DNA from: a virus
DNA: 28,123 nucleotides
IMG/VR virus record: IMGVR_UViG_3300044835_000071
Coordinates: 1-28,123 of that record
Direction: 5' to 3' (one strand)
The first letter of the stretch is position 1. Each line of letters begins with the position of its first letter. The notes below the pieces were generated by a model. The model saw only the letters and a program-made list of their open reading frames with translations, had not been told where the DNA came from and did not search any database. A program made the translations under genes and the position numbers. This document shows, piece after piece, positions 4,581 to 28,123 of this stretch.

Positions 4581-4591
4581 TTATAATATCC

Positions 4592-5011: not shown

Positions 5012-5012
5012 A

Positions 5013-7671: not shown

Positions 7672-7683
7672 TCACAATTTCTT

Positions 7684-9682: not shown

Positions 9683-9739
9683 AGCGCCAATAAAAAATCC
9701 CAGTATTACCGGGGCAAGGCTGAGAGTTTTGGTCAATGG

Positions 9740-11521: not shown

Positions 11522-11548
11522 GAGCCTCCTTCGGTGGCCATCCTTCAT

Positions 11549-13343: not shown

Positions 13344-13516
13344 AGCATCCAAACAGAGTGCTAATGGTTTGGATGGCCGCTATAGTTATTAGTTCCGGAT
13401 TATGGGCAGCACTCGGGTATTTTGCATACCATGCCATCCCCGCTATCAAAGCGTCTCAGCACAAGCATGTTGCTGGCTACTACGAATACAGTCAGTTTGT
13501 TGGGAGGAATCCATGA
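13340..13516 (+). CDS. 58-aa single-pass membrane protein
   Basis: 58 aa: MKHPNRVLMVWMAAIVISS then a continuing hydrophobic stretch to about residue 33, followed by a short soluble tail ending YSQFVGRNP. The N-terminus is basic, so Nin-Cout orientation is likely. GGAGGGAAT directly precedes the ATG at 13340. ATGA overlaps link it to both neighbours (start 13340 within the upstream stop, stop 13516 within the next start). The coupled arrangement makes it a convincing gene. Role unknown; its place beside nuclease and annealase genes gives no clear function. Confidence 0.7.
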   Translation: MKHPNRVLMVWMAAIVISSGLWAALGYFAYHAIPAIKASQHKHVAGYYEYSQFVGRNP

Positions 13517-14313: not shown

Positions 14314-14318
14314 AACCG

Positions 14319-15311: not shown

Positions 15312-15313
15312 GG
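15284..15313. repeat. 30-bp exact inverted repeat, left copy
   Basis: Positions 15284-15313 begin TGCGGTATTAGG and end CCCGTAAGG. The exact reverse complement is at 16664-16693. This copy covers the end of the recT-like coding region and its stop codon. It is preceded by CCGC-AAAAGT-GCGG, a small hairpin sharing its 3' arm with the repeat. Confidence 0.9.
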
Positions 15314-16663: not shown

Positions 16664-16693
16664 CCTTACGGGACGATGCTACCTAATACCGCA
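16664..16693. repeat. 30-bp exact inverted repeat, right copy
   Basis: Reverse complement of 15284-15313. It lies in the non-coding stretch between the winged-helix gene and the 38-aa gene. The neighbouring bases (GCAAAAGTG, through 16699) equal the loop of the left copy's hairpin in flipped orientation. The rest of 16571-16727 shows no gene. Confidence 0.9.
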
Positions 16694-16846: not shown

Positions 16847-17350
16847 ATGTCGCAAAGGATCAGAACCGAAGATGAAATCTTTGAAGTGAGCTATGTAGTT
16901 AATCCAGAAACTGGGTGCTGGGAATGGACAGGATGGATTCATCCAAAGGGTTACGGCATCCTCACCAACCACAAGCTTGTAAAGACTCGCGCGCATCGAT
17001 TTTCTTATCGGAAGTATAGGGGACCGATTTCCGATGGAAAGATGGTGCTTCACCATTGTGACAATCGGAAATGCGTCTGCCCCGATCATTTGTACTTGGG
17101 GGACGCCCGGAAAAACATGGCTGATGCTCTGGCGAGGGGACGGCGAAAACATGTCCCCTCGAAGCTCACTTATTCGATGGTTTTGAACATCAGGGTGCTT
17201 TACGCGAGAGGCAGACACTCGATGCAAAATCTCGCGGATATCTACTTGGTCGATCAACAAACGATAAGCCTTTTGCTGAAGGGCAGAACACACGCAAAGG
17301 TTGCTTGCGCCGCGCAAGATTGCAACCGAAAAATTAGGGGAGAGATGTAG
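16847..17350 (+). CDS. HNH homing-type endonuclease with C-terminal HTH
   Basis: 167 aa. The N-terminal domain shows 'GCWEWTGWIHPKGYG', 'AHRFSYRKYRG' and 'MVLHHCDNRKCVCPDHLYLG' followed by 'ARKNMADALARGRR' (through residue 100), the standard HNH_3 pattern with His69/His70 and Asn90. Residues 104-148 ('SKLTYSMVLNIRVLYARGRH' plus SMQNLADIYLVDQQTISLLLKGRTH) form a helix-turn-helix often attached to free-standing phage HNH enzymes. These nick or cut DNA and promote their own spread. It starts 2 bp after the 38-aa gene. No adjoining intron or split gene is visible. Confidence 0.85.
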   Translation: MSQRIRTEDEIFEVSYVVNPETGCWEWTGWIHPKGYGILTNHKLVKTRAHRFSYRKYRGPISDGKMVLHHCDNRKCVCPDHLYLGDARKNMADALARGRRKHVPSKLTYSMVLNIRVLYARGRHSMQNLADIYLVDQQTISLLLKGRTHAKVACAAQDCNRKIRGEM

Positions 17351-17425: not shown

Positions 17426-18424
17426 ATGATGCAAATTCAGCCTGCCGCTGCTCCTGAGTATTACCTGTCGCCTGACTACCGGACGGAGGGTGGAAAGCTC
17501 GAAGCCAGGTGGGGCGGCAAGGGCTCCCGGATGCTGGGTCAGGATGAGTTCGGCACCTTGTCTTTCCTTCGCTTGTCGAAGGGGCTGAATCCCGAGACTG
17601 GGACGAAGTTGACGGCTCGGTTGAAGGATAACCGCCGTTCGGCTTGGGATGTCACCATGACGGTTCCGAAGTCGGTTTCGATCCTCATAGAAGTGATGGA
17701 AAAGGCCGACGTAAAGAAAGCCCTGCTCGAAGCCAACGAATATGCGATGGGCAAGCTGGAAAAGCAAGCTCAGGTCAGGGTCCGAAAGGGTGGCGTCGAT
17801 GAGGATAGGCACACGGGCAATATCGCGTTTGCAACGTACTATCACGGCACAACTCGACCTGCTAAGGATGATTCACTGCCGGACCCGCATTCGCATCTTC
17901 ACAATTACCTCTTGAATCTCACCTACGACCGAAAAGAAAAGCAGTGGAAGGCTCTCCAAATCGGCAACATCGACCGACCGGGCATCGAAAAGGCTTTCCA
18001 TGATAGGCTGGCCAAGAATCTGAAATCGCTCGGGTACAAGCTCGATCAGAAGGGGAAGTATTTCGAGGTCCGTGGCGTGCAGCCTGAGACTATGGAATTA
18101 ATGTCTCGCCGCAACTTCGAGGTCGCCCGTTATAGCGATGAGAAGGGTTACAGGTCACCAAAGGCGAAGGCCAAACTCGGGCAATACACGCGCTCTCCCA
18201 AGGTCGGCGATATCTCGATGCAGGACGTCCGCAAGTATTGGGTCGTCAAGCTGGGCAGTAAGTTAGATGACTTACTGACCGTCTGCAAGAAGGCCAAGGT
18301 TGAGGTCAGTAAATCCCGCTGGCTCAACAACCTCAAGCAGCATTTTACAAGGCATCAATTCTCTGATATGGAGAAAGAAAGAGATAATGAGCAGCTTCGA
18401 TCCGGCGCAGCTATTGAGAGGTGA
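17426..18424 (+). CDS. TrwC/MOBF-type relaxase domain protein
   Basis: 332 aa. The N-terminal 'EYYLSPDYRTEGGKLEARWG' with GKGSRMLG gives candidate catalytic tyrosines Tyr12, Tyr13 and Tyr18. 'WDVTMTVPKSVSIL' (74-87) matches the conserved relaxase strand with Asp75. The metal-binding three-His motif is intact in 'DPHSHLHNYLLNLT' (His155, His157, His159). 'RPGIEKAFHDRLAKNLKSLG' continues the family pattern. TrwC/TraI proteins nick oriT, stay linked to the 5' end and are pumped out by a coupling protein. This one has no helicase domain, which in R388 or F adds 600 or more residues. The ATG at 17426 follows AGGGGG by 8 nt. Confidence 0.85.
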   Translation: MMQIQPAAAPEYYLSPDYRTEGGKLEARWGGKGSRMLGQDEFGTLSFLRLSKGLNPETGTKLTARLKDNRRSAWDVTMTVPKSVSILIEVMEKADVKKALLEANEYAMGKLEKQAQVRVRKGGVDEDRHTGNIAFATYYHGTTRPAKDDSLPDPHSHLHNYLLNLTYDRKEKQWKALQIGNIDRPGIEKAFHDRLAKNLKSLGYKLDQKGKYFEVRGVQPETMELMSRRNFEVARYSDEKGYRSPKAKAKLGQYTRSPKVGDISMQDVRKYWVVKLGSKLDDLLTVCKKAKVEVSKSRWLNNLKQHFTRHQFSDMEKERDNEQLRSGAAIER

Positions 18425-18806
18425 TCTGTCACACGTAAAGAAAGGCGACGACCAGGGCGACGGCATCGGCACGGACGAAAAGGGCCAGACCCCTATGCTA
18501 CGGCTCATCACCAGCAAACAGGGATTTCAATGGCTTCATTACGCAACGCTATCTTGGGGGGACCAATCGGAGGACGGAACTTGGTTTGATTTCTATTACA
18601 ACGGCCTCATTAAGTACGAAGGAAAATTAATAGTTGGTGATTGGCTAGTCAAGGTTAGGGGAACTGGACTGGAATTGATCTGTTACAAAATCTCCAAGCA
18701 CGTTCGCTCGCTCCTCAAGGTGGGCAGCACGGCGAACAGTCAGCAGCAGATTGTGGTGGAGTCGATATTGATTGAACCGACGAAGCTGGAAGGTCAGGAC
18801 GATTGA
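18387..18806 (+). CDS. Unknown protein coupled to relaxase
   Basis: 139 aa, beginning 'MSSFDPAQLLRGDLSHVKKG' with a beta-rich middle 'GTWFDFYYNGLIKYEGKLIV' then GDWLVKVRGTGLELICYKI. The start at 18387 overlaps the relaxase by 38 nt in another frame. No family is recognised. Linkage suggests a relaxosome accessory or a replication role, but this is position only. Its 3' end overlaps the convergent gene at 18794 by 13 nt. Confidence 0.55.
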   Translation: MSSFDPAQLLRGDLSHVKKGDDQGDGIGTDEKGQTPMLRLITSKQGFQWLHYATLSWGDQSEDGTWFDFYYNGLIKYEGKLIVGDWLVKVRGTGLELICYKISKHVRSLLKVGSTANSQQQIVVESILIEPTKLEGQDD

Positions 18807-18985
18807 TCGCCTTTAGATTTGGTGCTCTTGCGAGCAACAGCGGACTTTAACGCTCGTTCACACTGTATTTTTAGCATCTCCGTTAAGTGTTGTTGGTGAA
18901 CCTTGTATTCTGGGCAATGTCCGAACGATTCCCGGAGAACGCGAGTAGAGGAATCTATGGCTGCTTGCAGTTCTTGATTTGTCAT
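18794..18985 (-). CDS. Small helical protein, end of leftward operon
   Basis: 63 aa, helical: 'MTNQELQAAIDSSTRVLRES' and 'HQQHLTEMLKIQCERALKSA' then a Lys/Ser-rich tail. The ATG overlaps the stop of the upstream zinc-ribbon gene as ATGA, which supports it. No family is recognised. Confidence 0.55.
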   Translation of the reverse strand: MTNQELQAAIDSSTRVLRESFGHCPEYKVHQQHLTEMLKIQCERALKSAVARKSTKSKGDQSS

Positions 18986-19881
18986 GATTTCTCACCTTCT
19001 ATTTCATCGCCCTTCCGAGCCTCTTTAATTATTTGCCGCACACGACGCTCGTGTTGCTGGATGTCGTAAGATGACGTTTCAAATGGTTCGTCATTGATTA
19101 CCCGCCCCCGCCTCCATTGCTCGAATCGCTTCAGGATCGGCTGGAGGATGAATTTATCCAAGGCAAATTCCATCGCGTTGTAGACCGCTCCGGGAACGTT
19201 GCCATCGAGATTGCGACGTAGGCCCATTTCATACTCTGCGATGACTTGTGGGATAAAGTCTGTATTGAATTTGATCTGCCCATTCGTGGCCTGGTGGGTT
19301 AAGTGATCCAGCAAATCCCCTACAACGATTTCCCGCTCCGTTGCTTTGCTCAACGCTATAAGCAATTGCTTTATGGCTGATATTGAAAACAGGGCATCAC
19401 GTTCAAGCCCGCATTCTATGAGGCTACGGCAATCATCTGCCACGCAAAGTAGCTGCTCAATTTGAGACAACTCTACGGGCTGTTCAGTGGGGTAGACTTT
19501 CGGCTGTACAGTTTCCTCCGCTGGCAGCAATGCCGTCACCTTCCTGACCATCACCGAAAAGTTCACGGGTTCTGTGGCCATGATGACGCTGTTGATGGTG
19601 CGGGAAATCTTGGAAAATAAGCCAGGGCCTTTTCCTACTGTGTCCGTCGCTTCCATCACCGCTATTGCCATAACGGCTGGATTGGCCTTACTACTCCTAT
19701 ATTCTTCAGTTAGCGCGGTGTGGATTATTTGGTCTCGGGTCATGGCTTTAACTTCCTTCAATTCTGGTTGTTCTTCCCTGCACTTCGAGCACAGGCAGGC
19801 TTTTTCAGGATTGTCGTAGGCGTCGCAATCATAATCGGTATCGACTCTCCTGCCGCAAGATTTGCAATGGTCAAGGCTCAT
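18982..19881 (-). CDS. Zinc-ribbon protein of unknown function
   Basis: 299 aa. The N-terminus 'MSLDHCKSCGRRVDTDYDCD' with 'ACLCSKC' shortly after supplies CxxC...CxxC ligands for a zinc ribbon (about 6-32). The rest is mainly helical, with 'SQIEQLLCVADDCRSLIECG' and 'HERRVRQIIKEARKG' near the C-terminus. The ATG at 19881 fits the ribbon and follows AGGAAAG; the longer open frame to 19944 is unlikely. It lies in a leftward operon between a coiled-coil phage protein and a small coupled gene. No enzymatic motif is seen. Confidence 0.6.
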   Translation of the reverse strand: MSLDHCKSCGRRVDTDYDCDAYDNPEKACLCSKCREEQPELKEVKAMTRDQIIHTALTEEYRSSKANPAVMAIAVMEATDTVGKGPGLFSKISRTINSVIMATEPVNFSVMVRKVTALLPAEETVQPKVYPTEQPVELSQIEQLLCVADDCRSLIECGLERDALFSISAIKQLLIALSKATEREIVVGDLLDHLTHQATNGQIKFNTDFIPQVIAEYEMGLRRNLDGNVPGAVYNAMEFALDKFILQPILKRFEQWRRGRVINDEPFETSSYDIQQHERRVRQIIKEARKGDEIEGEKS

Positions 19882-19894
19882 AGGGGTTTCTTTC

Positions 19895-21076
19895 CTAGTA
19901 GCTGATTTTGACATGGGGGATAAGCCCCTTGGCAATGGCCGCAATTAGAGCCTTGGCAACTTCCGGTTTAACGTCCACTTCCTCTGAGTTGCAATGCTCG
20001 ATGATGGCATTCAAAGCCTCGTTGTTGATTTTCGCCATGTGCTTTTTGTCGGCCTCTCGCTTGGCGGCGGCTTCAGCTTCAGCTTTCTTTTCAGCCTCAA
20101 CCCGTTCCCTCTCTCTATGGACTGCGGCCTCTTCATCGCGCTTGGCCTGTTCGGCTGCCGCTACGCGTTCCCGTGTGGCTTTTTCGGCGGCTGCCTTCTT
20201 ATCAACTTCAGCTTTGACGATGGCTGCCGCTGCGTCTTCCTCAGCCTTCTTCGCCCGTACTATGGCCTGGTCCTTCTCACGCTGGATGCGGATTAGGTCC
20301 TGTTCCGCCTTGTCGGCTTCAGCTTTCAATCGGGTCGCTTCCGCTGCTGCTGCATCCTGCTCGGCCTTCACCCGTGCCGCTTGGGCTTCGGCTTCCTTGC
20401 GGGCCTTTTCCTCTGCTTCGGCCTTTGCTGTTGCGGCGGCTTCGGTTTTCAGGCGTTCCTCATGCTCGCGTTGCTTCCGGTCAGCCTCTTCCTGACGCAA
20501 CCGGGCCAGCTCCGCCTGTTCTGCTTCCCGTTTCTGTGCGGCTGCAAGCAGGGTTTTAGTCCGGCTGATTTCATCCACCGTGATCTTCGCAGCTCTTGCG
20601 TCAAACTCTTCCCATTTGCGGGGCGGAAGGTTTTCGAGGTGGTTCAGACGCTTGCGGATTTCCTCGGCGGTTTCGTGCTGCCCGTATCCCGGATGCTCTG
20701 GGATAGCAGCCAATGCCGCCTCATGGCCTGCAATCCGCTCCTTGTCGGCGTTTTCCCAATCCGAGAGCGGCTGGCGAACTTCCTTTTGGATCGCTTCGAG
20801 GGCATCCCAAGCCCGCGCACGCTCAACATCAACCGCCTTGATTTGCTTTTTCTGGTCTTCGGTGAGTTTCTTGCCCATTTCGTCCATTGCGGTCTTCGAC
20901 TTCGCTACTTTGAAAGCACGAGAGCGGATTTCATCGCGGCCCTTTTCGGTCGATATATCGCCCACTACTCCCATCACCTCAGTTCGGATTGCTTCGATAA
21001 CAGGGTCAAGTCCCTTGGGTGCGAAGTATTGGGCTAGATTTTTTTCTTCAATGAGGGCTAATGCGTTCTCGGTCAT
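19895..21076 (-). CDS. Long coiled-coil phage protein
   Basis: 393 aa. The N-terminal 120 residues are soluble ('NLAQYFAPKGLDPVIEAIRT', 'SRAFKVAKSKTAMDEMGKKL'), like the fold found in phage recombination-cluster proteins. Residues about 175-330 are almost continuous Ala/Glu/Lys/Arg coiled coil. The last 40 residues ('NNEALNAIIEHCNSEEVDVK' then ALIAAIAKGLIPHVKISY) match a tail I have often seen in phage proteins near RecT or Erf genes. The ATG at 21076 has AAGGAAGG upstream and overlaps the preceding stop as ATGA. Function unknown; a DNA-handling scaffold is a guess. Confidence 0.65.
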   Translation of the reverse strand: MTENALALIEEKNLAQYFAPKGLDPVIEAIRTEVMGVVGDISTEKGRDEIRSRAFKVAKSKTAMDEMGKKLTEDQKKQIKAVDVERARAWDALEAIQKEVRQPLSDWENADKERIAGHEAALAAIPEHPGYGQHETAEEIRKRLNHLENLPPRKWEEFDARAAKITVDEISRTKTLLAAAQKREAEQAELARLRQEEADRKQREHEERLKTEAAATAKAEAEEKARKEAEAQAARVKAEQDAAAAEATRLKAEADKAEQDLIRIQREKDQAIVRAKKAEEDAAAAIVKAEVDKKAAAEKATRERVAAAEQAKRDEEAAVHRERERVEAEKKAEAEAAAKREADKKHMAKINNEALNAIIEHCNSEEVDVKPEVAKALIAAIAKGLIPHVKISY

Positions 21077-21261
21077 AATTTTTCCTTCCTTTGGTTTGTT
21101 TTCATTTCCTTCTTCCGATTGGCAATCCAAGCCTTGCGGTAGGTGCGTTGGTACTCGCGGCTGCATGGGATGCAAGCCCCTGCGGCGTTCCGCTCACTTC
21201 CCCCGCATTTCGAGCAGGGGGATTTTGGGCGTCCAGGTTTGGGTTCGTTCGTCATGCCCAT
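21073..21261 (-). CDS. Small zinc-finger protein
   Basis: 62 aa. 'PCSKCGGSERNAAGACIPCS' has the CxxC-x10-CxxC spacing of a zinc ribbon, followed by a basic helix 'REYQRTYRKAWIANRKKEMK'. The start at 21261 overlaps the upstream stop as TAATG, and the stop overlaps the coiled-coil gene as ATGA. Probably nucleic-acid-binding; no named family. Confidence 0.7.
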   Translation of the reverse strand: MGMTNEPKPGRPKSPCSKCGGSERNAAGACIPCSREYQRTYRKAWIANRKKEMKTNQRKEKL

Positions 21262-21485
21262 TAGCAGTTTTTCATCTGCATCGACATGCGGAACGCTGCG
21301 TCTGCGGCTTGTGATGCGGCTTTCGTCTGAGCGGCGAATGGTGCATCATTCGCCCGGCTCCTCGCCCATGCTCGCATTGCGGCGGCATCCGTGTTGTCAT
21401 TTGCCTGCTCGAAGGCCATTTGGCTGTCGAACCAGTTTTGAAAGCATGTGGTTCGGGTGAAAGTCTGGGTTTGAGCGGTATTCAT
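21261..21485 (-). CDS. Small Ala-rich protein, first gene of operon
   Basis: 74 aa. The ATG at 21485 has GGAGGCTACA upstream; a start at 21497 is not supported. It contains 'FQNWFDSQMAFEQANDNTDA' and 'RANDAPFAAQTKAASQAADA'. No family is recognised. It follows a good promoter and is coupled to the zinc-finger gene. Confidence 0.6.
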   Translation of the reverse strand: MNTAQTQTFTRTTCFQNWFDSQMAFEQANDNTDAAAMRAWARSRANDAPFAAQTKAASQAADAAFRMSMQMKNC

Positions 21486-21515
21486 TGTAGCCTCCATTGT
21501 GTTGTTTGTATTTTT

Positions 21516-21544
21516 GTTTTACATTGTGTTTTTGCTTCGGTCAA
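21516..21544 (-). promoter_or_regulatory. Leftward promoter for the 21485-18794 operon
   Basis: TTGACC (21544-21539), a 17-bp spacer, TAAAAC (21521-21516) on the minus strand. It lies 31 bp upstream of the first ATG and just downstream of a terminator. Confidence 0.65.
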
Positions 21545-21550
21545 GCGGTA

Positions 21551-21567
21551 TTTGATGCGTCATCAAA
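21551..21567. promoter_or_regulatory. Candidate operator dyad TTTGATG-CGT-CATCAAA
   Basis: A perfect 7-bp inverted repeat with a 3-bp centre lies 6 bp upstream of the -35 of the leftward promoter, the usual place for an activator or repressor site. Confidence 0.45.
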
Positions 21568-21573
21568 CAAAAA

Positions 21574-21593
21574 ACCGCCTGTACTCAGGCGGT
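21574..21593 (-). terminator. Leftward intrinsic terminator
   Basis: Perfect 8-bp stem ACCGCCTG/CAGGCGGT with a 4-nt loop, followed on the minus strand by a run of six T. It ends the single-gene unit at 21626-21850. Confidence 0.85.
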
Positions 21594-21625
21594 CGTTTTC
21601 CGGTCGATTTTTTGCCTGACTCCGC

Positions 21626-21850
21626 CTATGGCCAGCTTTGAAACAGCGGGTCGTTACACTCGGTCTTGATGTTGAATACTGGCAGGATGCGGCCTGCGAG
21701 ACAGCTATTGTGCCACACGCCGACTGCTCCCGTGGTTCCGGGGTTCCAATAAAGGCGGATGTACTGGTCAACGGCGTCGGCGGTGTCTCTCCCGCCTAGC
21801 ATGACGTGCCAAGCGGTTCCGTCTGAAAAGGGAACGATGAAATGAAACAT
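21626..21850 (-). CDS. Small protein of unknown function
   Basis: 74 aa, beginning MFHFIVPFSDGTAWHVMLGG, with 'TADAVDQYIRLYWNPGTTGA'. CAGGAG lies 9 nt upstream of the ATG at 21850. It is a single-gene unit, bounded by hairpins on both sides. The fold looks alpha/beta; no family is recognised. Confidence 0.6.
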   Translation of the reverse strand: MFHFIVPFSDGTAWHVMLGGRDTADAVDQYIRLYWNPGTTGAVGVWHNSCLAGRILPVFNIKTECNDPLFQSWP

Positions 21851-21923
21851 GGGGCTTGCTCCTGATTGGCTAAGCATTTAGGTCAGTTTGCGAAATTGCG
21901 CAAGTTGACGATTTGCGAGGGAA

Positions 21924-21943
21924 AGGGCGGCTTTCGCCGCCCT
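21924..21943 (-). terminator. Leftward terminator-like hairpin after DUF932 gene
   Basis: Perfect 8-bp stem AGGGCGGC/GCCGCCCT with a 4-nt loop; on the minus strand it is followed by TTTCCC, a weak T-tract. It lies 8 bp past the DUF932 stop. Confidence 0.65.
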
Positions 21944-21951
21944 GTTCGCGT

Positions 21952-22752
21952 TCAAACCAGCTTCGCCATCTCTGCTGCCAGTGTCCAAAGCCCCCTATTG
22001 ATGGCCAAATCGCCCGTCACGCTCTTGACGGCCTTGGTGGTCACCTTCCGGCCCGTGGTCGCGGTCCCGCTGATGCCGCCCCGGATAAGCGATTCCTGAA
22101 TCACGTTCGTCGTCCGCCAAAGGTCGCGGCGGGCCTCGCCGTCGGTGTAATCGGCCTCCCTGCGGGCGGTGAGAAGGAAAGCGGGCTTGATGGCGACGTG
22201 CGGCTTAAGCTCTGCCGCTGCCGTGGCAAGTGCGAGCTGCTGCGGGCGGGAAAGGTCGATTCCCTTCCACTCGCCAACGTTCTGCATGGCCTGGGCGGTG
22301 ATGCTGAGCACTTCGCCCGTGGTGTCGATGATCTGCTGGCGGAGGTCGCGGCTGCCGCTGTGGCGGAGCGAGAAGCTGCCGTAATCCTCGGACTGGACGA
22401 TCATGCCGTTTGAGCAGACGAGGCGGAAAATCCCCGCGAAAAGCTTGTAAGCTGAGCTGCGGTCATGGGAGTTGACCAAAACCAGTTCTGGCACTTCGTC
22501 GTGAAGGGCCGGGGCGAGCTGGTCAACGTGGCGGAGTCGGATCATGTGCTTGGTGAAGGGGGCCTTGCCAGCGATGCGGGTGCGGGACTGGCTGGCTGTG
22601 ACGGGGTAAAACCCCTGATCCTGCATCATGCCAAGGATGTCGGCGGTCGCGACGAAGCGGTAATTGCTGCTGACGCTCTCCCAAGGGGTGGTGGCGAAGA
22701 TGCTGGGGACGGTCTGGCGGAGCTGGTCTTGGGTGAGGATGGCGGTGGTCAT
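21952..22752 (-). CDS. DUF932 phage/plasmid protein
   Basis: 266 aa. 'PWESVSSNYRFVATADILGM', 'HMIRLRHVDQL', 'ELVLVNSHDRSSAYKLFAGI' with FRLVCSNGMIV, and the helical 'FLLTARREADYTDGEARRDL' region are the standard signature of DUF932, a family found on phages and plasmids with unknown activity. The ATG at 22752 has AGGAAC upstream. The gene is visibly more GC-rich than its neighbours, suggesting separate acquisition. It is followed by its own terminator. Confidence 0.85.
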   Translation of the reverse strand: MTTAILTQDQLRQTVPSIFATTPWESVSSNYRFVATADILGMMQDQGFYPVTASQSRTRIAGKAPFTKHMIRLRHVDQLAPALHDEVPELVLVNSHDRSSAYKLFAGIFRLVCSNGMIVQSEDYGSFSLRHSGSRDLRQQIIDTTGEVLSITAQAMQNVGEWKGIDLSRPQQLALATAAAELKPHVAIKPAFLLTARREADYTDGEARRDLWRTTNVIQESLIRGGISGTATTGRKVTTKAVKSVTGDLAINRGLWTLAAEMAKLV

Positions 22753-22949
22753 GGGTTGGGTTCCTGCCTGCAAATTGAAAGGGCTGGGGATGCGGCACTC
22801 GCCGTCATTCACCTGCTTACAGGCAAGGAATTGAATAGAGCGGAAGTCACCCGTAATCGGGCTTGAGGGAGAAGTGGAATCTGCAAGTAGCGTACTCGCG
22901 GATGAAGATTACGCGCCACGACCTTGACGAAGCGTGTCTTATAGGCCGG

Positions 22950-23282
22950 TTAGTGAATCCGCCAATTTGTATCGTCACGGTTGCCTTTGCCCTCGTTATC
23001 GAAAGCACATAAGCATTGCCCGTTTGAAACTTCCAACGCCAAATGGGGATGCGTAATTCTTGGCTTGATATGGTCCGCATTCAGGATGGTTGGTTTTCCA
23101 TCCGGGCTGATGTCTCCAGCCTTCCTGCCGCAAAGATCACAACGGCCCTTGCTGGCTTTCATCACGTCGTGCGCCCAGCGTTTATGTTCTGGCGTGGAAA
23201 GCCATTCTGGACTTGAGACGAATGTAGTTGGGAAACGAGGCTTCTTCCGCTTGCGGATTATCCTGCGATAGAGGCGTCTCAT
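22950..23282 (-). CDS. HNH nuclease
   Basis: 110 aa. A basic N-terminus is followed by 'GRCDLCGRKAG' (Cys48, Cys51), 'LNADHIKPRITHPHLALEVS' with Asp70/His71 and Asn87, and 'CLCAFDNEGKGNRDDTNWR', the typical small phage HNH domain. The second zinc pair usually reads CxxCN; here it is C-A-F-D-N, so the last Cys is Asp95. The start ATG overlaps the upstream stop as ATGA. HNH proteins of this type are common in phages and can assist packaging or act as nicking enzymes. About 200 bp between its stop and the DUF932 start show no convincing gene. Confidence 0.8.
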   Translation of the reverse strand: MRRLYRRIIRKRKKPRFPTTFVSSPEWLSTPEHKRWAHDVMKASKGRCDLCGRKAGDISPDGKPTILNADHIKPRITHPHLALEVSNGQCLCAFDNEGKGNRDDTNWRIH

Positions 23283-23476
23283 CGCGAGCGGCCTATTTCA
23301 GATGTGTGGGCTTTGCCGTATTCATGCTGCTCGATATAGTCCTGATAGTCATTGAACAACGGATGAGGTCGGACACCATACTGTTTTAGTATTTCTGGGA
23401 TTGTAATTGGCCTCTTCTGGCATCGCCGCTTAGATTCTTTCCATTCCTCAGCGGTTAGTTTGATCGGCCCTATCAC
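23279..23476 (-). CDS. Small basic protein of unknown function
   Basis: 65 aa. 'EEWKESKRRCQKRPITIPEI' then 'YGVRPHPLFNDYQDYIEQHE'. It has ATGA overlaps with both neighbours, indicating coupled translation. No family is recognised; it precedes an HNH nuclease and may act with it. Confidence 0.55.
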   Translation of the reverse strand: MIGPIKLTAEEWKESKRRCQKRPITIPEILKQYGVRPHPLFNDYQDYIEQHEYGKAHTSEIGRSR

Positions 23477-23880
23477 CGACCCCGGCCTTTATCCTCGTTC
23501 GTCGTAACCATTGCCACATAGTTAATATCGCCATCGGCTTCACGCATTGTCTTTTTGTCCGCAATGAATAAGCTGGCATCCTGAGCGGGCGATTCATCAT
23601 CGAAGCCGTTCTTAACAGCTATACCCTGTTCTCTGGCGTTTAACGGCGGGTTGGCTTCGATGGCATAACTGGAATCATCCGAAGTGATAAGACGCCCTCT
23701 ACCGGATGCAACGCGGCCTGTGAAGGGTTTGCGGGATGTGTTCGGCTTTGGTTCTATCACCTCTTTTTCAGGCGGCGGAGCTTCCAGGCGTTCTTTGAGG
23801 GCCTTGAATTCTGGCAATTCAGCTAGCAGAGCGCCGCTTTCGTTGCTGCTAGTGCTGGTGAATCTCCGATCCCGCTTCAT
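23473..23880 (-). CDS. Hydrophilic protein of unknown function
   Basis: 135 aa, largely disordered in composition: Ser/Thr at the N-terminus, then 'RLEAPPPEKEVIEPKPNTSR' and 'TGRVASGRGRLITSDDSSYA'. The C-terminal part 'DASLFIADKKTMREADGDIN' with YVAMVTTNEDKG may be a short folded region. The ATG at 23880 has GGAG 5 nt upstream. It is the first gene of a three-gene unit with a strong promoter. No family is recognised. Confidence 0.55.
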   Translation of the reverse strand: MKRDRRFTSTSSNESGALLAELPEFKALKERLEAPPPEKEVIEPKPNTSRKPFTGRVASGRGRLITSDDSSYAIEANPPLNAREQGIAVKNGFDDESPAQDASLFIADKKTMREADGDINYVAMVTTNEDKGRGR

Positions 23881-23887
23881 ATTGTCT

Positions 23888-23904
23888 CCGGGTTGTTCGC
23901 CCGG
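23888..23904 (-). promoter_or_regulatory. Dyad at transcription/translation start (CCGGG-N7-CCCGG)
   Basis: CCGGG and CCCGG arms with a 7-bp centre lie between the -10 and the start codon; the GG of the ribosome-binding GGAG is part of one arm. The flanks (TTCCGGGC and AACCCGGAG) recur upstream of parB at 26572-26607. Confidence 0.45.
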
Positions 23905-23905
23905 A

Positions 23906-23934
23906 ATGGTAGCGCAGTTCCAAAATGTCGTCAA
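23906..23934 (-). promoter_or_regulatory. Leftward promoter for 23880-22950 unit
   Basis: TTGACG (23934-23929), a 17-bp spacer, TACCAT (23911-23906) on the minus strand; a likely start site near 23899 falls in the CCGGG dyad. Confidence 0.65.
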
Positions 23935-24020
23935 CAAAAAGATTAGCGAGGCATAGCCGAGCGCCCGGCCATATTTCAGACTGGGTTAGTTAAGCACCTG
24001 ACTGTCTGATCGTTGCCCTT

Positions 24021-24623
24021 TCAAACCCGCATCGGCATCTGCACGTACAGCATTCGCTCATTGTCACAGGTTACAACACAAGGATCGCTTGGGCTGCCGA
24101 TATGAAGCTTCACTCCGGCGCTGTACGCATCACTGAGCTTGCGGGCAGCTTTGCCAATATCCGCCAGATATAGGGCATTGAAACCAACCTCAGTTTCGCC
24201 TCGCTTGCTGGGGATTACGCGTTCGTAGTCAGGGTAATGGCCGTCAATCAACGTGAACACGGCGGTGTGGCTATCCGGCAAGAGTGTCAGTGCCACTTTT
24301 TCATCCGTGAAATCGAACCGCACCAGCTCCTTATCAGACCCCTTGGGCAGCTTGATTTTTCCAAGCCATTCCACAGCTGTGCGGGGGATGATCGCCCCTA
24401 AATCACCGTCAATCGGCTTCTCCTTGCTGGTGGTTTCGTCCTGAGGATAAAGCCATAGTCTTCCAATGCGATGCCCGTCCGTTGCCACGGCAAAAAGCTT
24501 TTGTTGTTTGGCGTGGATATAAACGCCGTTGAGGTAATAGCGGGTTTCTTCTTTTGACATGCAAAATGCCAATCCGTCAGCAATCTGCTTGGCTTCCTTG
24601 GCCTTCAAGTAAAATGTGGTCAT
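24021..24623 (-). CDS. dnaN: Two-domain beta-type DNA sliding clamp
   Basis: 200 aa. 'TRYYLNGVYIHAKQQKLFAV' with ATDGHRIG (about 28-54) is the hallmark of domain II of bacterial beta clamps. 'TLIDGHYPDYERVIPS' marks the domain II/III junction, and 'MLYVQMPMRV' the C-terminus. Host beta clamps have three domains and about 370 residues; the first is absent here. A ring of six domains would then need three subunits, as in T4 gp45 or PCNA, rather than two (inference). It would tether a polymerase to the element's DNA. The ATG at 24623 follows AAAGGA by 6 nt; longer in-frame extensions look spurious. Confidence 0.85.
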   Translation of the reverse strand: MTTFYLKAKEAKQIADGLAFCMSKEETRYYLNGVYIHAKQQKLFAVATDGHRIGRLWLYPQDETTSKEKPIDGDLGAIIPRTAVEWLGKIKLPKGSDKELVRFDFTDEKVALTLLPDSHTAVFTLIDGHYPDYERVIPSKRGETEVGFNALYLADIGKAARKLSDAYSAGVKLHIGSPSDPCVVTCDNERMLYVQMPMRV

Positions 24624-24670
24624 TTCGATTCCTTTCTGTACGTTATCTCGCGTTCTTGATGGTCGGTCAT
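24620..24670 (-). CDS. 16-aa mini-ORF bridging to the clamp gene
   Basis: MTDHQEREITYRKESK. Its ATG overlaps the upstream stop as ATGA and its TGA overlaps the clamp ATG as ATGA. AAAGG lies 7 nt upstream. It probably keeps ribosomes on the message up to the clamp start; whether the peptide matters is unknown. Confidence 0.35.
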   Translation of the reverse strand: MTDHQEREITYRKESK

Positions 24671-25026
24671 GCCGTAACCTTTGCGTTGGCAATGACAGCT
24701 CTTGCTTCATCGATGCTAAGCTGATGGGCTTTCCAATCATGGTCAACGATTGTCCCTTGCTCGTAGCATTGTTTGACCCCTTCCAGATCAGCGAGAGCGC
24801 ATCGTAGGGCCTGAAGTAATTTCGTGGTGGCTTCTAGCAATTCGGCACGTGCATCATCAATGCCTTTCTGAGCGGCTGAAATAATTGCCTCTCGCGTCTT
24901 GGCCATGGTGTAATTCTTCAGATTACTACCGCTGGGTTTCAATATTGCATCAGCCATCGCCTCAGCTTCCGGCGTGTATTTGGCGACTTGATTTTTGGTG
25001 GTGTTTGTGGTTTTAATATCATTCAT
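24667..25026 (-). CDS. Helical protein of unknown function
   Basis: 119 aa. 'YTPEAEAMADAILKPSGSNL' then 'EAIISAAQKGIDDARAELLE' and a long helix 'TTKLLQALRCALADLEGVKQ'. The start at 25026 has AAGGAATAGTGATT upstream. It is coupled to the clamp gene through a mini-ORF. No family is recognised; a replication accessory role is possible from linkage. Confidence 0.55.
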   Translation of the reverse strand: MNDIKTTNTTKNQVAKYTPEAEAMADAILKPSGSNLKNYTMAKTREAIISAAQKGIDDARAELLEATTKLLQALRCALADLEGVKQCYEQGTIVDHDWKAHQLSIDEARAVIANAKVTA

Positions 25027-25059
25027 AATCACTATTCCTTAAGCAGTTAGTGGTTTGTT

Positions 25060-25081
25060 GGGCCGGGGTCCACCCCGGCCC
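25060..25081. terminator. Strong GC hairpin between small genes and clamp operon
   Basis: Perfect 10-bp stem GGGCCGGGGT/ACCCCGGCCC with a 2-bp centre. On the plus strand TTTCTGTTT follows, but no rightward gene ends here. On the minus strand there is no T-tract. It may attenuate leftward transcription after 25110. Confidence 0.5.
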
Positions 25082-25109
25082 TTTCTGTTTAGCAGTTTGG
25101 TTATATCAG

Positions 25110-25262
25110 TCAAGCACTTATTTCAATAATATGTCCCCAGTCATTTGGCTTTCCGCTTCTGATTTTCTTGTCAAGCCATTTCTGGGCTTCGTCTTTCAAA
25201 TCGAAAACAGGACCTGGCTCTTCCCACGATGGGTAGCTGATGAAAACGGGCTGGTATTTCAT
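25110..25262 (-). CDS. 50-aa small protein
   Basis: 50 aa: MKYQPVFISYPSWEEPGPV, then 'DLKDEAQKWLDKKIRSGKPN' and a terminal 'GHIIEISA'. The ATG at 25262 follows GGAGGCTCT and overlaps the upstream stop as ATGA. The pattern strand-helix-strand suggests a small folded protein. No family is recognised. Confidence 0.65.
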   Translation of the reverse strand: MKYQPVFISYPSWEEPGPVFDLKDEAQKWLDKKIRSGKPNDWGHIIEISA

Positions 25263-25513
25263 AGAGCCTCCTGCACCATGTCGATAGAGAACCATGCCAT
25301 CTCTTCCAACTCCGTCCCTATGCGGATGTTCCGCTCGACCCCTTCGGCGATCTTCAGCCAATATTCGATGCTGCAAACCTCCTCGCAGCAAGCAACAAGC
25401 TCATCGCTCCCCCGGTTGGCTGGGTTTTCCCTTAACTTCCTGATGTGCTTCGTAAGAGAGCGGTGACGCCGCAATAGGCATTCGCTCAAGGTGTGGACTG
25501 GCTCGTAGGTCAT
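25259..25513 (-). CDS. 84-aa helical protein
   Basis: 84 aa: 'MTYEPVHTLSECLLRRHRSL' then TKHIRKLRENP and 'ELVACCEEVCSIEYWLKIAE'. The ATG at 25513 follows AAAGGAGACCCT. The frame is open to 25804, but that extension is Arg/Pro/Ala-rich and not protein-like. A 40-nt hairpin sits just upstream. Coupled to the 50-aa gene. No family is recognised. Confidence 0.6.
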   Translation of the reverse strand: MTYEPVHTLSECLLRRHRSLTKHIRKLRENPANRGSDELVACCEEVCSIEYWLKIAEGVERNIRIGTELEEMAWFSIDMVQEAL

Positions 25514-25530
25514 AGGGTCTCCTTTGGTTG

Positions 25531-25570
25531 TTAGGTTGCAGGTGAGGCAACGCCTCGTCCTGCAACCTAA
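25531..25570 (-). repeat. 40-nt near-perfect hairpin in the leader of the 84-aa gene
   Basis: TTAGGTTGCAGG (25531-25542) pairs with CCTGCAACCTAA (25559-25570), and inside it GAGGC (25544-25548) pairs with GCCTC (25552-25556): 17 base pairs around a 3-nt loop. On the minus strand it ends about 10 nt before the AAAGGAG site. No T-tract follows, so it is not a normal terminator. Confidence 0.75.
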
Positions 25571-25777
25571 TGGAGGCCATCCTAAGAGCGGGGGTGAGAC
25601 TGTCAATAGGTGGGGAGCGTAGCGCCCCCGTCTGCACTGAGCGGCAGCGAGGGAAGATGGGGTGCCTATTGATGGTCGAGGGGCGTTTAGGCCCCTACGA
25701 TAGGTTGACGCGCAGGCTTGGTGCGCAGCACGGAGCCGAATAGGCGAACCCATAGCGGGAACCGTAATCGCCCAATG
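25571..25777. other. Structured non-coding stretch
   Basis: No convincing gene. It contains TCAATAGG (25603-25610) / CCTATTGA (25665-25672), AGGGGC (25679-25684) / GCCCCT (25691-25696), and CGGAGCCGA (25731-25739), whose complement TCGGCTCCG is at 25812-25820 beyond the terminator. With the hairpin at 25531-25570 this is the most structured non-coding region of the window. Possible roles are a non-coding RNA, origin or centromere; none is shown. Confidence 0.5.
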
Positions 25778-25808
25778 AAAAACCCCTTGCACCTTGCGGT
25801 ACAAAGGG
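25778..25808 (-). terminator. Leftward intrinsic terminator after the XRE regulator
   Basis: On the minus strand CCCTTTGTACC (25808-25798) pairs with GGTGCAAGGGG (25793-25783), all 11 pairs formed including two G-U, closing a GCAA tetraloop, and is followed by TTTTT (25782-25778). The wobble pairs fit only the leftward RNA, showing its direction. Confidence 0.85.
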
Positions 25809-25858
25809 TAATCGGCTCCGTTCGTGAAAGGTTATTGCTCCTAACCAGTCAGGTTCGG

Positions 25859-26527
25859 TCAGTTACCACCGTCCTTACTAGTTTCCTTCGGCTTCGCAAT
25901 TTGCCTTGGTGATTGAAATGGCGTTCGTGTCTCGGCAATCACATCACCACCATTTCGTCGCCTTTCAGCCTCTTCTTTCATCTTCATAAGCTCTTCTAGA
26001 AGTGCCGGTCCAATACCCCGTCTTTTTGGCATTGATCGAATTATGTGTTTTAGTTCTTCATCATTAGGTGCATCAGATTTGTATGAGATGAGTGGAAAAT
26101 TTTCTGAGCCAATGAGCTTCTCCAGTTCCATGTATAGTCGCAGGATGTCGTCAAGATCCATTTCAATCGTGATCTTCGTGCTATTGGAAGGTTCCGCGCC
26201 TTTGATCTCCATGTCTCCCCCATCCGGTACGAGTTTTCGGAGAAAATCAAGGATTGCGTCGCACCGGTCTTGATCGCATTTGCTGAAATCAATATTTAAA
26301 ATCAATTGCATGTTAACGCGTTTGGAAATAGGTGCGACTATCTCTTCGATTTTAACCCCCAACGCGCCAGCGATACACTCAAGCGTAAGAACATGAAGAC
26401 CTTTGCCCCTCTCTGCGTTCCATATCGTACTTGTACTTACTCCCGCCTTCCTCGCCAAAGTTTCGGCATTCCAAGCCTTTTGCTTGCGGAGTTCCCGGAC
26501 CCTATCCCCGTTGGTCGTACTTGCCAT
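25859..26527 (-). CDS. XRE-family regulator with unusual C-terminal domain
   Basis: 222 aa. Residues 9-63 ('RVRELRKQKAWNAETLARKA' then GVSTSTIWNAERGKGLHVLTLECIAGALGV) are a clear HTH_3 domain. Residues about 73-135 form a compact alpha/beta region: 'MQLILNIDFSKCDQDRCDAI', 'MEIKGAEPSNSTKITIEMDL' then 'DILRLYMELEKL'. This is not the S24 peptidase of CI/LexA repressors; it loosely resembles small domains found in other bacterial signalling proteins. The tail is charged. It stands alone between its own terminator and the divergent parB gene, the position of a lysogeny or copy-control regulator (inference). The ribosome-binding site is weak (GGTAAG). Confidence 0.75.
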   Translation of the reverse strand: MASTTNGDRVRELRKQKAWNAETLARKAGVSTSTIWNAERGKGLHVLTLECIAGALGVKIEEIVAPISKRVNMQLILNIDFSKCDQDRCDAILDFLRKLVPDGGDMEIKGAEPSNSTKITIEMDLDDILRLYMELEKLIGSENFPLISYKSDAPNDEELKHIIRSMPKRRGIGPALLEELMKMKEEAERRRNGGDVIAETRTPFQSPRQIAKPKETSKDGGN

Positions 26528-26573
26528 TAACTTACCACAATCTTGCCACTTTCTTGGGATTCCCTAACTCCTT

Positions 26574-26612
26574 CCGGGCAATAGGATTCGATAGTCCTAA
26601 CCCGGAGGCACC
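26574..26612 (+). promoter_or_regulatory. Hairpin over the parB ribosome-binding site
   Basis: CCGGG (26574-26578) pairs with CCCGG (26601-26605), and inside it TAGGA (26582-26586) with TCCTA (26595-26599). The GG of the ribosome-binding GGAGG (26604-26608) is in the outer arm, so a folded leader would limit parB translation. The outer sequences match those at 23887-23906. Elsewhere in 26528-26573, GGGATTCCC is a further 9-bp palindrome. Confidence 0.5.
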
Positions 26613-27392
26613 ATGAAGCCGGAAAAGCTGGGCTGGTTCAAGTTCGACCCGAACCAGCCACGGAAGAATTGTACCGAAGAGGATCTGCTGGGGCTAGGCG
26701 CGTCTCTCAAGGCCCACGGGCAGATTCAACCCGTCGTTGCTCGTCCAGATGGAACGATCCTCTGCGGTGAACGCCGCGTCAGGGCCGCTCAACTGGTTGG
26801 CCTGTCTGAACTTACGGTCATTATCTCCGACCGCAAGCTCACTGACACCGAAGTCCGCCTGATGCAACTCGCCGAGAACATCCATCGGACTGACCTGTCC
26901 GGCTGGGAACGGTACGTCGCGTACTACGAAATCCTGACCCTCAACCCCGGCTGGCAGCAGAAAGACCTGGCCGATCACTTGAAGCTCAACGAAGGGACCG
27001 TTTCCCGTGCCCTCAGCGTGGCCAAATGTTCCAAGGAGTGGCAGGACGCCTTGAAGGCCGGGCAGGTCACGCTGACCCAATGCGCCAAGGCCAGTCAGAT
27101 GAGGGCCGACGAACAGGAGGGATATCTGGCTTCGATTTTGTCGGGGGCACCCAAGGAGGAGCAGGACAAAAAGGCACGCAATAAATCCGAAGCGGCATCG
27201 GTCAAGACCAACAAGAAGATCAAATGCCCGCTTCAATCGGGCGTGGTCATTCAGGCTGCCGGTGACGAGCTGTCGCTGGATGACTTTATCGAGGCATTGG
27301 CCGAGGCTCAGAAGCTGGCCAAGGCGGCATTGTCAAAGGGAATGACCGCTTCTACGGCTTGCAAAGTCTGGGCTGACATGGCGGCGGTGTAG
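26613..27392 (+). CDS. parB: ParB/Spo0J-family partition protein
   Basis: 259 aa. The N-terminal domain has 'NQPRKNCTEEDLLGLGASLK' and AHGQIQPVVARPDG, then the CTP-binding motif 'GERRVRAAQLVGL' (about 52-64), and 'LMQLAENIHRTDLSGWERYV' before a helix-turn-helix 'QKDLADHLKLNEGTVSRAL'. A Lys-rich linker (about 185-210) leads to a C-terminal helical region that may dimerise. ParB clamps slide from parS sites and, with ParA, segregate plasmids or chromosomes. No parA is visible beside it and no parS-like 16-mer was found. It is divergent from the XRE regulator and starts the rightward unit that leads into the coupling protein. Confidence 0.85.
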   Translation: MKPEKLGWFKFDPNQPRKNCTEEDLLGLGASLKAHGQIQPVVARPDGTILCGERRVRAAQLVGLSELTVIISDRKLTDTEVRLMQLAENIHRTDLSGWERYVAYYEILTLNPGWQQKDLADHLKLNEGTVSRALSVAKCSKEWQDALKAGQVTLTQCAKASQMRADEQEGYLASILSGAPKEEQDKKARNKSEAASVKTNKKIKCPLQSGVVIQAAGDELSLDDFIEALAEAQKLAKAALSKGMTASTACKVWADMAAV

Positions 27393-27431
27393 CCGCCTCA
27401 CTACCACTATCACCAATCACAGGACTCGTCA

Positions 27432-27866
27432 ATGAAGGAGATCGTGATAAGGCTCACAGTCATGGGCACACCCGTTATCATCATCGGCTTTGCCACATGG
27501 ATGATTTGGGCGCTCATGGCGAATTTCCTGAACGGGCTCTCCTACGTGCTGAGCAACACATCGAGACTCAGCAATCTGAGCAAACGCCTGACCGTGGATG
27601 ACATCGAACTTCTTGAGAAAATTCTCAAGAGGCTTCGTGAGAGTCAGGAATTCGGCAGGGAATTGGACACTATGAAATGGCCAGAGCGCCAAAGAACGGG
27701 GGTCAATTCACTATCCTCTTACATTCCGGGTGTCAAATGCTCAGACGTATCAACATCGCCACAATCTGCATCACAGCCTCTCTCGCGGGCCTTATCCTCT
27801 ACCAATTCCCCATCGCGTGGATTTTCTCCATTGCGATTCTTGCTGCGAATCTTAGTCGGAGGGTGA
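27432..27866 (+). CDS. Small membrane protein upstream of coupling protein
   Basis: 144 aa. One membrane segment (about 8-31, 'LTVMGTPVIIIGFATWMIWA' onward) is followed by a helical 'TVDDIELLEKILKRLRESQE' region. From about residue 82 the frame lies over the coupling-protein gene, and the Ser-rich tail looks like a by-product of that overlap. GAAGGAG lies close to the ATG at 27432 but partly inside it, so the start is not well fixed. A role as an accessory of the transfer apparatus is a guess from position. Confidence 0.5.
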   Translation: MKEIVIRLTVMGTPVIIIGFATWMIWALMANFLNGLSYVLSNTSRLSNLSKRLTVDDIELLEKILKRLRESQEFGRELDTMKWPERQRTGVNSLSSYIPGVKCSDVSTSPQSASQPLSRALSSTNSPSRGFSPLRFLLRILVGG

Positions 27867-28123
27867 CAACGCTCAATGCCTACGGCAGCAGCCGCTGGGC
27901 GGAACTCAATGACGTGATGCATCTGCGATCAGGTTACGGAGTTGTCATCGGGTACATGGGTGGCAGGATCAGCAAATTACAAGGATTGAAGGCGCTGTTT
28001 AATCGGCGTGATGGGGCAAGAAATTTCCTCGAATCCCTCCAGAAAAAACCTCCTGACAACCTCCTTAGGCTGACGGATGCGGTCCACACGCTCGTCATCG
28101 GTCCAACCCGCTCGGGCAAAGGC
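27677..28123 (+). CDS. VirD4/TraG-type conjugative coupling protein, partial
   Basis: 149 codons visible; runs off the right edge. From the internal Met at 27737, 'MLRRINIATICITASLAGLI' with LYQFPIAWIFSIAILAANL gives two membrane segments, as at the N-terminus of VirD4/TraG. 'YGSSRWAELNDVMHL' matches the family's 'GSARWA' block, and 'VHTLVIGPTRSGKG' at the end is the Walker A motif. These hexameric ATPases pass relaxase-DNA to a type IV secretion channel. The start could be 27677 or 27737, in the same frame; neither has a strong ribosome-binding site. Either overlaps the preceding ORF. Confidence 0.85.
   Translation, partial: MARAPKNGGQFTILLHSGCQMLRRINIATICITASLAGLILYQFPIAWIFSIAILAANLSRRVTTLNAYGSSRWAELNDVMHLRSGYGVVIGYMGGRISKLQGLKALFNRRDGARNFLESLQKKPPDNLLRLTDAVHTLVIGPTRSGKG

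What the first reader, a model, noticed from the sequence alone, without database searches (positions are those of the whole stretch)
17426..28123. Phage virion genes and conjugation genes on one contiguous element
Capsid, portal and both terminase genes (268-9682) share a 28-kb stretch with a MOBF relaxase (17426-18424), ParB (26613-27392) and the start of a VirD4/TraG coupling protein (27677 onward). Each is called from clear motifs seen in the sequence: HSHLH in the relaxase, GPTRSGKG in the coupling protein, both terminase active sites. Phage-plasmids with ParB are known; a virion-forming element that also has its own relaxase and coupling protein is unusual. It suggests two routes of spread, or a relaxase reused for rolling-circle replication.
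Basis: partly seen in the sequence, partly recalled or inferred. Interest (0 to 1): 0.72.

Follow-up and report, generated by a model that had tools for sequence, protein, structure and literature searches.

The report
Planctomycete phages carrying conjugation genes
This 28-kb virus fragment really does carry phage capsid genes together with a DNA-nicking relaxase and a conjugation coupling protein, and at least three prophages in a cultured planctomycete bacterium have the same combination, so a whole lineage of phages may have a second, plasmid-like way to process or move its DNA.

Summary
Capsid, portal and terminases (268-9736), a MOBF (TrwC) relaxase (17426-18424), ParB (26613-27392) and the start of a VirD4/TraG coupling protein (T4CP; ~27737 to the end) lie on one contig, an IMG/VR record cut at both ends. 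A misjoined assembly is unlikely. In the isolate planctomycete Zavarzinella formosa, six of eight MOBF relaxases lie in prophages with a gapR gene. Two are exactly delimited. Z8a (63.0 kb, 33-bp repeats at a tRNA-Met gene) has one integrase, T4CP, relaxase-helicase, portal, capsid and tail genes. Z4 (67.4 kb, 46-bp tRNA repeats) has myophage genes, relaxase, ParB, T4CP and integrase. Z3 is a siphophage version. The window shares TerS, GapR, HNH, relaxase, a 394-aa gene, ParB and T4CP with Z3, in nearly the same order, but has a podophage head. So a mobilisation backbone known from planctomycete plasmids recurs with different virion modules. Whether it conjugates is open: the window relaxase keeps its catalytic residues but lacks the helicase, no oriT was found, and no VirB4 was found in four planctomycete genomes. 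Best reading: an integrative, mobilisable temperate phage; relaxase-driven rolling-circle replication is the main rival.

The parts
2..241 (-). 3'-open virion gene downstream of the head gene; the module runs off the left end
   Evidence: similar ORFs next to the head gene in relatives, 53-60%
268..1251 (-). major head protein
   Evidence: phrog_9953 E 1e-92; 66% to L045, 57% to MW202489
1281..2348 (-). scaffold-like protein (inferred from position)
   Evidence: 41-44% to the same position in relatives
2887..4005 (-). GDSL/SGNH hydrolase in the virion module
   Evidence: PF13472 E 1.6e-14
5386..7671 (-). portal protein
   Evidence: phrog_12082 E 1.5e-164; 48% to L045
7684..9294 (-). terminase large subunit
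   Evidence: PF03237, PF17289; 59% to L051 and L056
9251..9736 (-). terminase small subunit (start probably 9682)
   Evidence: PF03592 E 4.4e-12; 47-55% to Z. formosa prophages Z8a, Z3, Z8b against 33-37% to head-protein relatives
9740..10285 (-). NusG/RfaH-like protein
   Evidence: PF02357 E 1e-16
10727..11548 (-). phage primosomal / replication-initiation O-like protein (DUF1376)
   Evidence: phrog_6451 9e-22, phrog_678 4e-21; PF07120
12156..12464 (-). GapR-like DNA-binding protein
   Evidence: PF10073 E 9e-31; 63-76% to GapR in six Z. formosa prophages, 59% to G014
13402..14313 (+). PD-(D/E)XK nuclease of the RecT module
   Evidence: PF12705 E 1.1e-15
14310..15311 (+). RecT-like annealing protein
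   Evidence: 53-55% to RecT of Burkholderia and Pseudomonas phages; PF03837 weak
15284..15313 (+). left arm of a perfect 30-nt inverted repeat
16664..16693 (-). right arm of the same inverted repeat
16847..17350 (+). HNH_3 endonuclease
   Evidence: PF13392 E 1.6e-8; 47% to Z3
17426..18424 (+). MOBF relaxase, catalytic domain only
   Evidence: PF08751 E 3.1e-50; TrwC and TraI structures E 1e-15; Tyr and HUH residues aligned
18387..18806 (+). small gene overlapping the relaxase end; Z. formosa and plasmid relaxase genes are also followed by a small gene, but no homology was found
19895..21079 (-). 394-aa coiled-coil protein, phage early gene
   Evidence: 42-43% to genes near gapR in Z3 and Z4
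21952..22752 (-). DUF932 protein
   Evidence: PF06067; 49-50% to genes behind the relaxase in planctomycete loci L208 and L227
24021..24623 (-). DNA polymerase III beta-like clamp
   Evidence: PF02767 E 9e-15; phage homologues
25859..26527 (-). XRE regulator, divergent from parB
   Evidence: PF01381; same position in L172 and L177
26613..27392 (+). ParB
   Evidence: PF02195; 41-47% to ParB in L185, L245, L172, L177, L186, L178
27737..28123 (+). VirD4/TraG-type coupling protein, N-terminal part with Walker A, cut by the contig end

Best explanation
The window is a fragment of an integrative, mobilisable temperate phage of a planctomycete. A mobilisation backbone known from planctomycete plasmids and islands (MOBF relaxase, ParB, T4CP; shown by homology and gene order) is joined to a phage genome (here podophage-type virion genes, RecT, GapR; shown). 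By analogy with delimited relatives, the element integrates at a tRNA gene through a tyrosine integrase (att sites and integrase shown for Z4 and Z8a, inferred here). After excision it can be packaged by its own terminase (inferred). Separately, the relaxase nicks an unidentified oriT and passes a strand to the T4CP for export through mating machinery supplied in trans and not yet recognised in these hosts (inferred, weakest step). The window copy has lost the relaxase's helicase domain, so another helicase would be needed.
For: Both gene sets on one contig. Z8a: 33-bp att repeats at 654 and 63,654, the latter the end of a tRNA-Met gene; one integrase, T4CP (PF02534 1.5e-64), relaxase-helicase, portal, capsid; a single 129-N gap at 56,382 in the first 60 kb. 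Z4: 46-bp repeats at the 3' half of a tRNA, no third copy, both gene sets inside. Z3: siphophage virion genes, relaxase-helicase, ParB, T4CP, integrase. Six of eight Z. formosa relaxases lie in gapR prophages. Seven window genes from 9.3 to 28.1 kb have homologues in Z3, mostly collinear. G014, an independent metagenomic siphophage, has a full relaxase-helicase plus TerS, TerL, portal and capsid. T4CP is kept, which rolling-circle replication would not need. Composition of the two halves correlates at 0.567, above the 95th percentile (0.551) of GC-matched pairs from different contigs.
Against: No VirB4 by two models in Z. formosa, a Gemmata strain or two more planctomycete genomes, nor in the window. 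No oriT: the hairpin+GATGTCTG motif found upstream of about 19 related relaxases is missing upstream of the relaxase in the window and in the Z. formosa phages. The window relaxase lacks the helicase and sits on a very long branch (2.9). Z3, Z4, Z8b, Z16 and Z1 contain scaffold gaps. No integrase or lysis gene within the fragment. No data on induction, particles or transfer.
Confidence: 0.5

Rival explanations
1. The element is a genuine phage with plasmid genes, but the relaxase acts as a replication protein: it nicks the excised circle and starts rolling-circle replication for maintenance or lytic growth, as relaxases of some ICEs do. The T4CP is accessory or vestigial.
For: HUH triad and both tyrosines kept while the conjugative helicase is gone. 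Three Z. formosa prophages and G014 have the relaxase near early genes such as gapR with no T4CP found nearby. No VirB4 in the hosts.
Against: T4CP is kept in Z3, Z4, Z8a and the window. The window also has a phage O-like replication gene. MOBF enzymes normally work with a helicase.
Confidence: 0.22
2. A natural fusion of a phage with a mobilisation island in which one half is now inert, for example a decaying relaxase in the window element.
For: Helicase loss and long branch; virion-less elements with the same backbone exist in Z. formosa (C4:717-744k), in G188 and G299, and as plasmids.
Against: The reading frame is open and catalytic residues are intact; repeated co-occurrence in at least two relaxase clades.
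Confidence: 0.18
3. The contig is a misassembly of a phage and a planctomycete plasmid.
For: No relative of the virion module among 50 records carries TrwC. A perfect 30-nt inverted repeat sits near the possible joint. No raw reads were available.
Against: Left-half TerS and GapR, and the HNH gene beside the relaxase, have close homologues in Z. formosa elements that also carry the right-half genes. The halves share composition. Isolate elements show the same union.
Confidence: 0.06
4. The coupling ATPase is a non-conjugative family member (HerA/FtsK-like).
For: Only the N-terminal part is present and it has no Pfam hit.
Against: It aligns over helices and Walker A with Z. formosa T4CPs that score PF02534 at 3.5e-72 and 1.5e-64, and parB precedes it as in plasmids.
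Confidence: 0.04

Closest known systems
Zavarzinella formosa DSM 19928 prophage-like elements (one listed in PMC7947584 as intact prophage NZ_JH636446.1:39426-61037)
   Same: Virion genes, GapR, MOBF relaxase; Z3 and Z4 also ParB and T4CP, Z8a also T4CP. The listed coordinates match the virion part of Z8a (scaffold identity inferred from order and coordinates).
   Different: Sipho- or myophage virion modules instead of podophage; where sequence is gap-free the relaxase has the helicase. The paper does not mention relaxase or conjugation.
Planctomycete plasmids pSINAC03 and PALBO2, and virion-less islands in Z. formosa, G188 and G299
   Same: MOBF relaxase, ParB and T4CP in similar order.
   Different: No virion genes found; relaxase includes the helicase.
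Phage-plasmids (P1-like and others)
   Same: Virion genes plus a plasmid partition gene.
   Different: [quoted passage not shown] P1-derived plasmids with mob genes appear to have lost transfer as phages (PMC10879196). The relatives here are integrated at tRNA genes.
Conjugative prophage Phi1207.3 of Streptococcus pyogenes
   Same: A prophage reported to move by a process that fits conjugation.
   Different: The paper names no relaxase; mechanism unexplained (PMC4260502).
Phage-ICE tandems in the TIGER/Islander resource
   Same: Phage and conjugation genes called in one island, under 0.1% of islands (PMC12424338).
   Different: Described as tandems; only one integrase was recognised in Z8a and Z4, and no third att copy was found in Z4.
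TrwC (R388) and TraI (F) relaxases
   Same: Catalytic domain homologous, Tyr and HUH residues kept.
   Different: Window protein stops before the helicase.

Membership tests
Phage-plasmid | Virion and packaging genes | tested here: met
Phage-plasmid | Plasmid partition and replication genes | tested here: inconclusive
   ParB present; no ParA or plasmid Rep recognised; phage O-like replication gene present
Phage-plasmid | Extrachromosomal lysogenic state | not testable with these tools
   Delimited relatives are integrated
MOBF relaxase | HUH metal triad and catalytic tyrosines | tested here: met
   H140, H157, H159, Y12, Y18 align with TrwC
MOBF relaxase | C-terminal SF1 helicase | tested here: not met
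   332 aa; no helicase homology behind it; present in Z3, Z8a, G014
VirD4/TraG coupling protein | Membrane helices and Walker A | tested here: met
VirD4/TraG coupling protein | C-terminal TraG/TraD region | not testable with these tools
   Cut by contig end; present in Z4 and Z8a homologues
Integrative conjugative element | Own VirB4 / mating-pair machinery | tested here: not met
   None in the fragment; none in four planctomycete genomes; the fragment is incomplete
Integrative mobilisable element | Integrase and att sites | not testable with these tools
   Not within the fragment; met in Z4 and Z8a
Integrative mobilisable element | oriT | tested here: inconclusive
   Family motif not found

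The most novel reading that the evidence does not exclude
Planctomycetota harbour a lineage of dual-route temperate phages: one integrated element that can leave in its own capsid or by relaxase and coupling protein, with virion modules (sipho, myo, podo) exchanged on a common mobilisation backbone, and with mating machinery not recognised by current VirB4 models.
Probability: 0.3. Interest if true: 0.88.

Novelty: new variant of a known kind. Interest (0 to 1): 0.72.

Why it matters
Phages and conjugative elements are usually treated as separate classes, sorted by whether capsid or relaxase genes are found. Here delimited integrated elements carry both, repeatedly, in a poorly studied phylum. 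If both routes work, host range and gene flow would not be limited by phage receptors. If only one works, the element shows how one mobile-element type converts into another. The cultured host Z. formosa makes it directly testable. The finding that planctomycetes hold many relaxase+T4CP elements but no recognised VirB4 raises an open question: how such elements move.

Tried and rejected
Chimera: tested by gene sharing, composition and isolate genomes; considered unlikely. Alphaproteobacterial host, suggested by GapR: dropped after GapR was found six times in Z. formosa. MT836143 as a phage with relaxase: its ORFs read as ordinary bacterial genes. G016 and G018 as phages: G018 encodes a VirB4-like ATPase and looks like a conjugative plasmid. 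G013 (P2-like): transfer genes lie beyond two integrase genes, so possibly a neighbouring element; not used. 'Split relaxase' in Z4, Z8b and Z16: explained by runs of N inside the gene. The 30-nt inverted repeat as an oriT: hairpin resemblance only, no support. Searches with single proteins (relaxase, T4CP, DnaN) found no relatives in IMG/VR. Head-protein relatives in planctomycete genomes: only weak hits. No paper on planctomycete prophages with relaxases was found in the held library, which misses most subscription journals.
Full report
WHAT THE WINDOW IS. The window is a complete IMG/VR virus record of 28,123 bases, classed as a linear fragment. Its left edge cuts a virion gene and its right edge cuts the coupling protein, so it cannot be extended with the data held here.

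OBSERVATION. Virion genes occupy 2-9736 on the minus strand: head protein (phrog_9953, 1e-92), portal (phrog_12082, 1.5e-164), TerL (Terminase_6N/6C) and TerS (Terminase_2). Annotated phages with a related portal include Myxococcus phage Mx8, and the head protein is 57% identical to that of phage ctMlz233, MW202489. An early region follows, with NusG-like, primosomal O-like, GapR, PD-(D/E)XK and RecT genes. Then come an HNH gene, a TrwC-type relaxase (3.1e-50), several early-type genes (DUF932, DnaN-like clamp), an XRE regulator, ParB and the coupling protein. The relaxase keeps Y12, Y18, H140, H157 and H159, which align with the TrwC tyrosines and histidines, and matches TrwC and TraI structures. 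It ends at 332 aa, without the helicase.

RARITY. None of 50 records with a related head protein carries TrwC; their ParB_N hits are in open frames of about 305-550 aa, unlike the 259-aa ParB here. Only one annotated phage record matched the relaxase, and its ORFs read as ordinary bacterial genes.

WHERE THE RIGHT HALF COMES FROM. The best plasmid matches of the relaxase include Runella pSP2_3 and three planctomycete plasmids. In pSINAC03 and PALBO2 a ParB gene lies a few genes before a VirD4-type gene. A scan of bacterial genomes returned 80 relatives, mostly Planctomycetota. Several share ParB at 6.7-8.7 kb behind the relaxase, with an XRE gene divergent from parB in L172 and L177, a T4CP in L185, L245 and L189, and DUF932 at 49-50% in L208 and L227. 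So 17.4-28.1 kb is a coherent mobilisation backbone.

IS THE UNION REAL? GapR, at first taken as an alphaproteobacterial sign, was found six times in the isolate Z. formosa DSM 19928, and six of its eight relaxases lie within about 24 kb of one of these. All six loci except Z4 carry siphophage virion genes homologous to the metagenomic phage G014; Z4 carries myophage-type genes. G014 itself combines TerS, TerL, portal, capsid and a full relaxase-helicase.

DELIMITED ELEMENTS. Z8a lies between 33-bp repeats at C8:654 and C8:63,654, the latter being the 3' end of an intact tRNA-Met gene. Within these 63.0 kb are one recognised integrase, a T4CP, a 1079-aa relaxase-helicase, GapR, TerS, portal, capsid, tail genes and a lysozyme-like gene (named from its sequence by eye), with a single gap of 129 N at 56,382 in the first 60 kb. 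Z4 lies between 46-bp repeats formed by the 3' half of a tRNA, 67.4 kb apart, with no third copy between them. It holds a myophage-type virion module, GapR, relaxase, ParB, T4CP and integrase. Its 596-N gap falls inside the relaxase gene, so the head and terminase genes and the relaxase domain are on one gap-free stretch (764,730-797,122). Z3 has a siphophage module and the same backbone, across two scaffold gaps. A published list gives a Z. formosa 'intact prophage' at NZ_JH636446.1:39426-61037 (PMC7947584). By position this is the virion part of Z8a, so the transfer genes fell outside the predicted borders.

LINK TO THE WINDOW. In Z3 the window finds TerS (55%), GapR (76%), HNH (47%), relaxase (40%), the 394-aa protein (42%), ParB (29%) and T4CP (32%), in nearly the same order and with the virion genes transcribed away from the transfer genes. 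TerS is closer to Z. formosa prophages (47-55%) than to the podophages that share the head protein (33-37%). Tetranucleotide usage of the two halves correlates at 0.567, against a 95th percentile of 0.551 between GC-matched pieces of different contigs, and planctomycete sequences rank high for both halves. This is supportive only, since the middle region correlates less well (0.42-0.46). Together these make a misassembly unlikely, though reads were not available.

HOW IT MAY WORK. Shown: gene content, att repeats of Z4 and Z8a at tRNA genes, conserved relaxase active site, retention of T4CP in four elements. Inferred: packaging by the element's own terminase, nicking at an oriT, export through a T4CP. 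Two facts weigh against simple conjugation. VirB4 models PF03135 and PF19044 found nothing in Z. formosa, a Gemmata strain, G188 or G299, while controls rang. No oriT was recognised: a hairpin followed by GATGTCTG lies upstream of about 19 related relaxases, mostly of Bacteroidota, Verrucomicrobiota and planctomycetes, but not in the window or upstream of the Z. formosa phage relaxases. The window relaxase also lacks its helicase. I therefore rate mobilisation in trans at 0.5 and relaxase-driven rolling-circle replication at 0.22.

HISTORY. In a quick relaxase tree the phage-borne relaxases fall in at least two places: Z3 and Z4 with plasmid pSINAC03 (support 100), and Z1, Z8a, Z8b, Z16 with G014 (94). 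The window is a long, unplaced branch. The careful tree did not finish, so this is provisional. It suggests repeated exchange between plasmids, islands and phages. Z3 and Z4 also share lysis-region genes, mostly at 94-98%.

NOVELTY. Phage-plasmids and conjugative prophages are known, but a relaxase or oriT is reported in only two P1-like phage-plasmids (PMC10879196), the Phi1207.3 paper names no relaxase (PMC4260502), and phage-ICE tandems are under 0.1% of islands (PMC12424338). A recurrent planctomycete lineage of this sort was not found in the library searched. I file it as a new variant of a known kind.

Noticed in passing
window 15284-15313 and 16664-16693: Perfect 30-nt inverted repeat, 1350 nt between arms, found in no other fetched locus; one arm overlaps the end of recT. 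Unexplained.
   Followed up: partly
upstream of relaxases in L017, L176, L179, L191, L203, L205, L206, L246 and others: Likely oriT family: 6-7-bp hairpin followed by GRGATGTCTG, typically 65-280 nt upstream of the relaxase; TGTCT resembles the R388 nic core (recalled, not tested).
   Followed up: partly
Z. formosa (G073), G475, G188, G299: Several MOBF relaxase and T4CP elements but no VirB4 by PF03135 or PF19044: mating machinery unknown or absent.
   Followed up: partly
Z. formosa C4:717-744 kb: A virion-less relaxase-ParB-T4CP element with a serine recombinase abuts Z4, apparently in tandem at the same tRNA-derived site.
   Followed up: no
Z. formosa Z3 (C3:798-799.5 kb) and Z4 (C4:752-753.3 kb): Lysis-region genes 94-98% alike (one small ORF 83%) between elements with different virion modules: recent exchange.
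   Followed up: no
IMG/VR records G016, G018 (L023, L025): Listed as viral but G018 has a VirB4-like ATPase and a MOBF relaxase: likely a conjugative plasmid; G016 has the same relaxase.
   Followed up: partly
IMG/VR record G013 (L020, L028-L030): P2-like prophage genes with T4CP, relaxase and helicase genes beyond two integrase genes; both the T4CP and the relaxase-helicase are split into overlapping frames.
   Followed up: partly
MT836143.1 (L018): GenBank 'Bacteriophage sp.' whose ORFs read as bacterial housekeeping genes; its relaxase hit is not evidence for a phage.
   Followed up: yes
window 9740-10285: NusG/RfaH-like gene next to the terminase genes, perhaps an antiterminator for late transcription.
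   Followed up: no
window 2887-4005: GDSL/SGNH hydrolase gene inside the virion module; absent from the head-protein relatives fetched.
   Followed up: no
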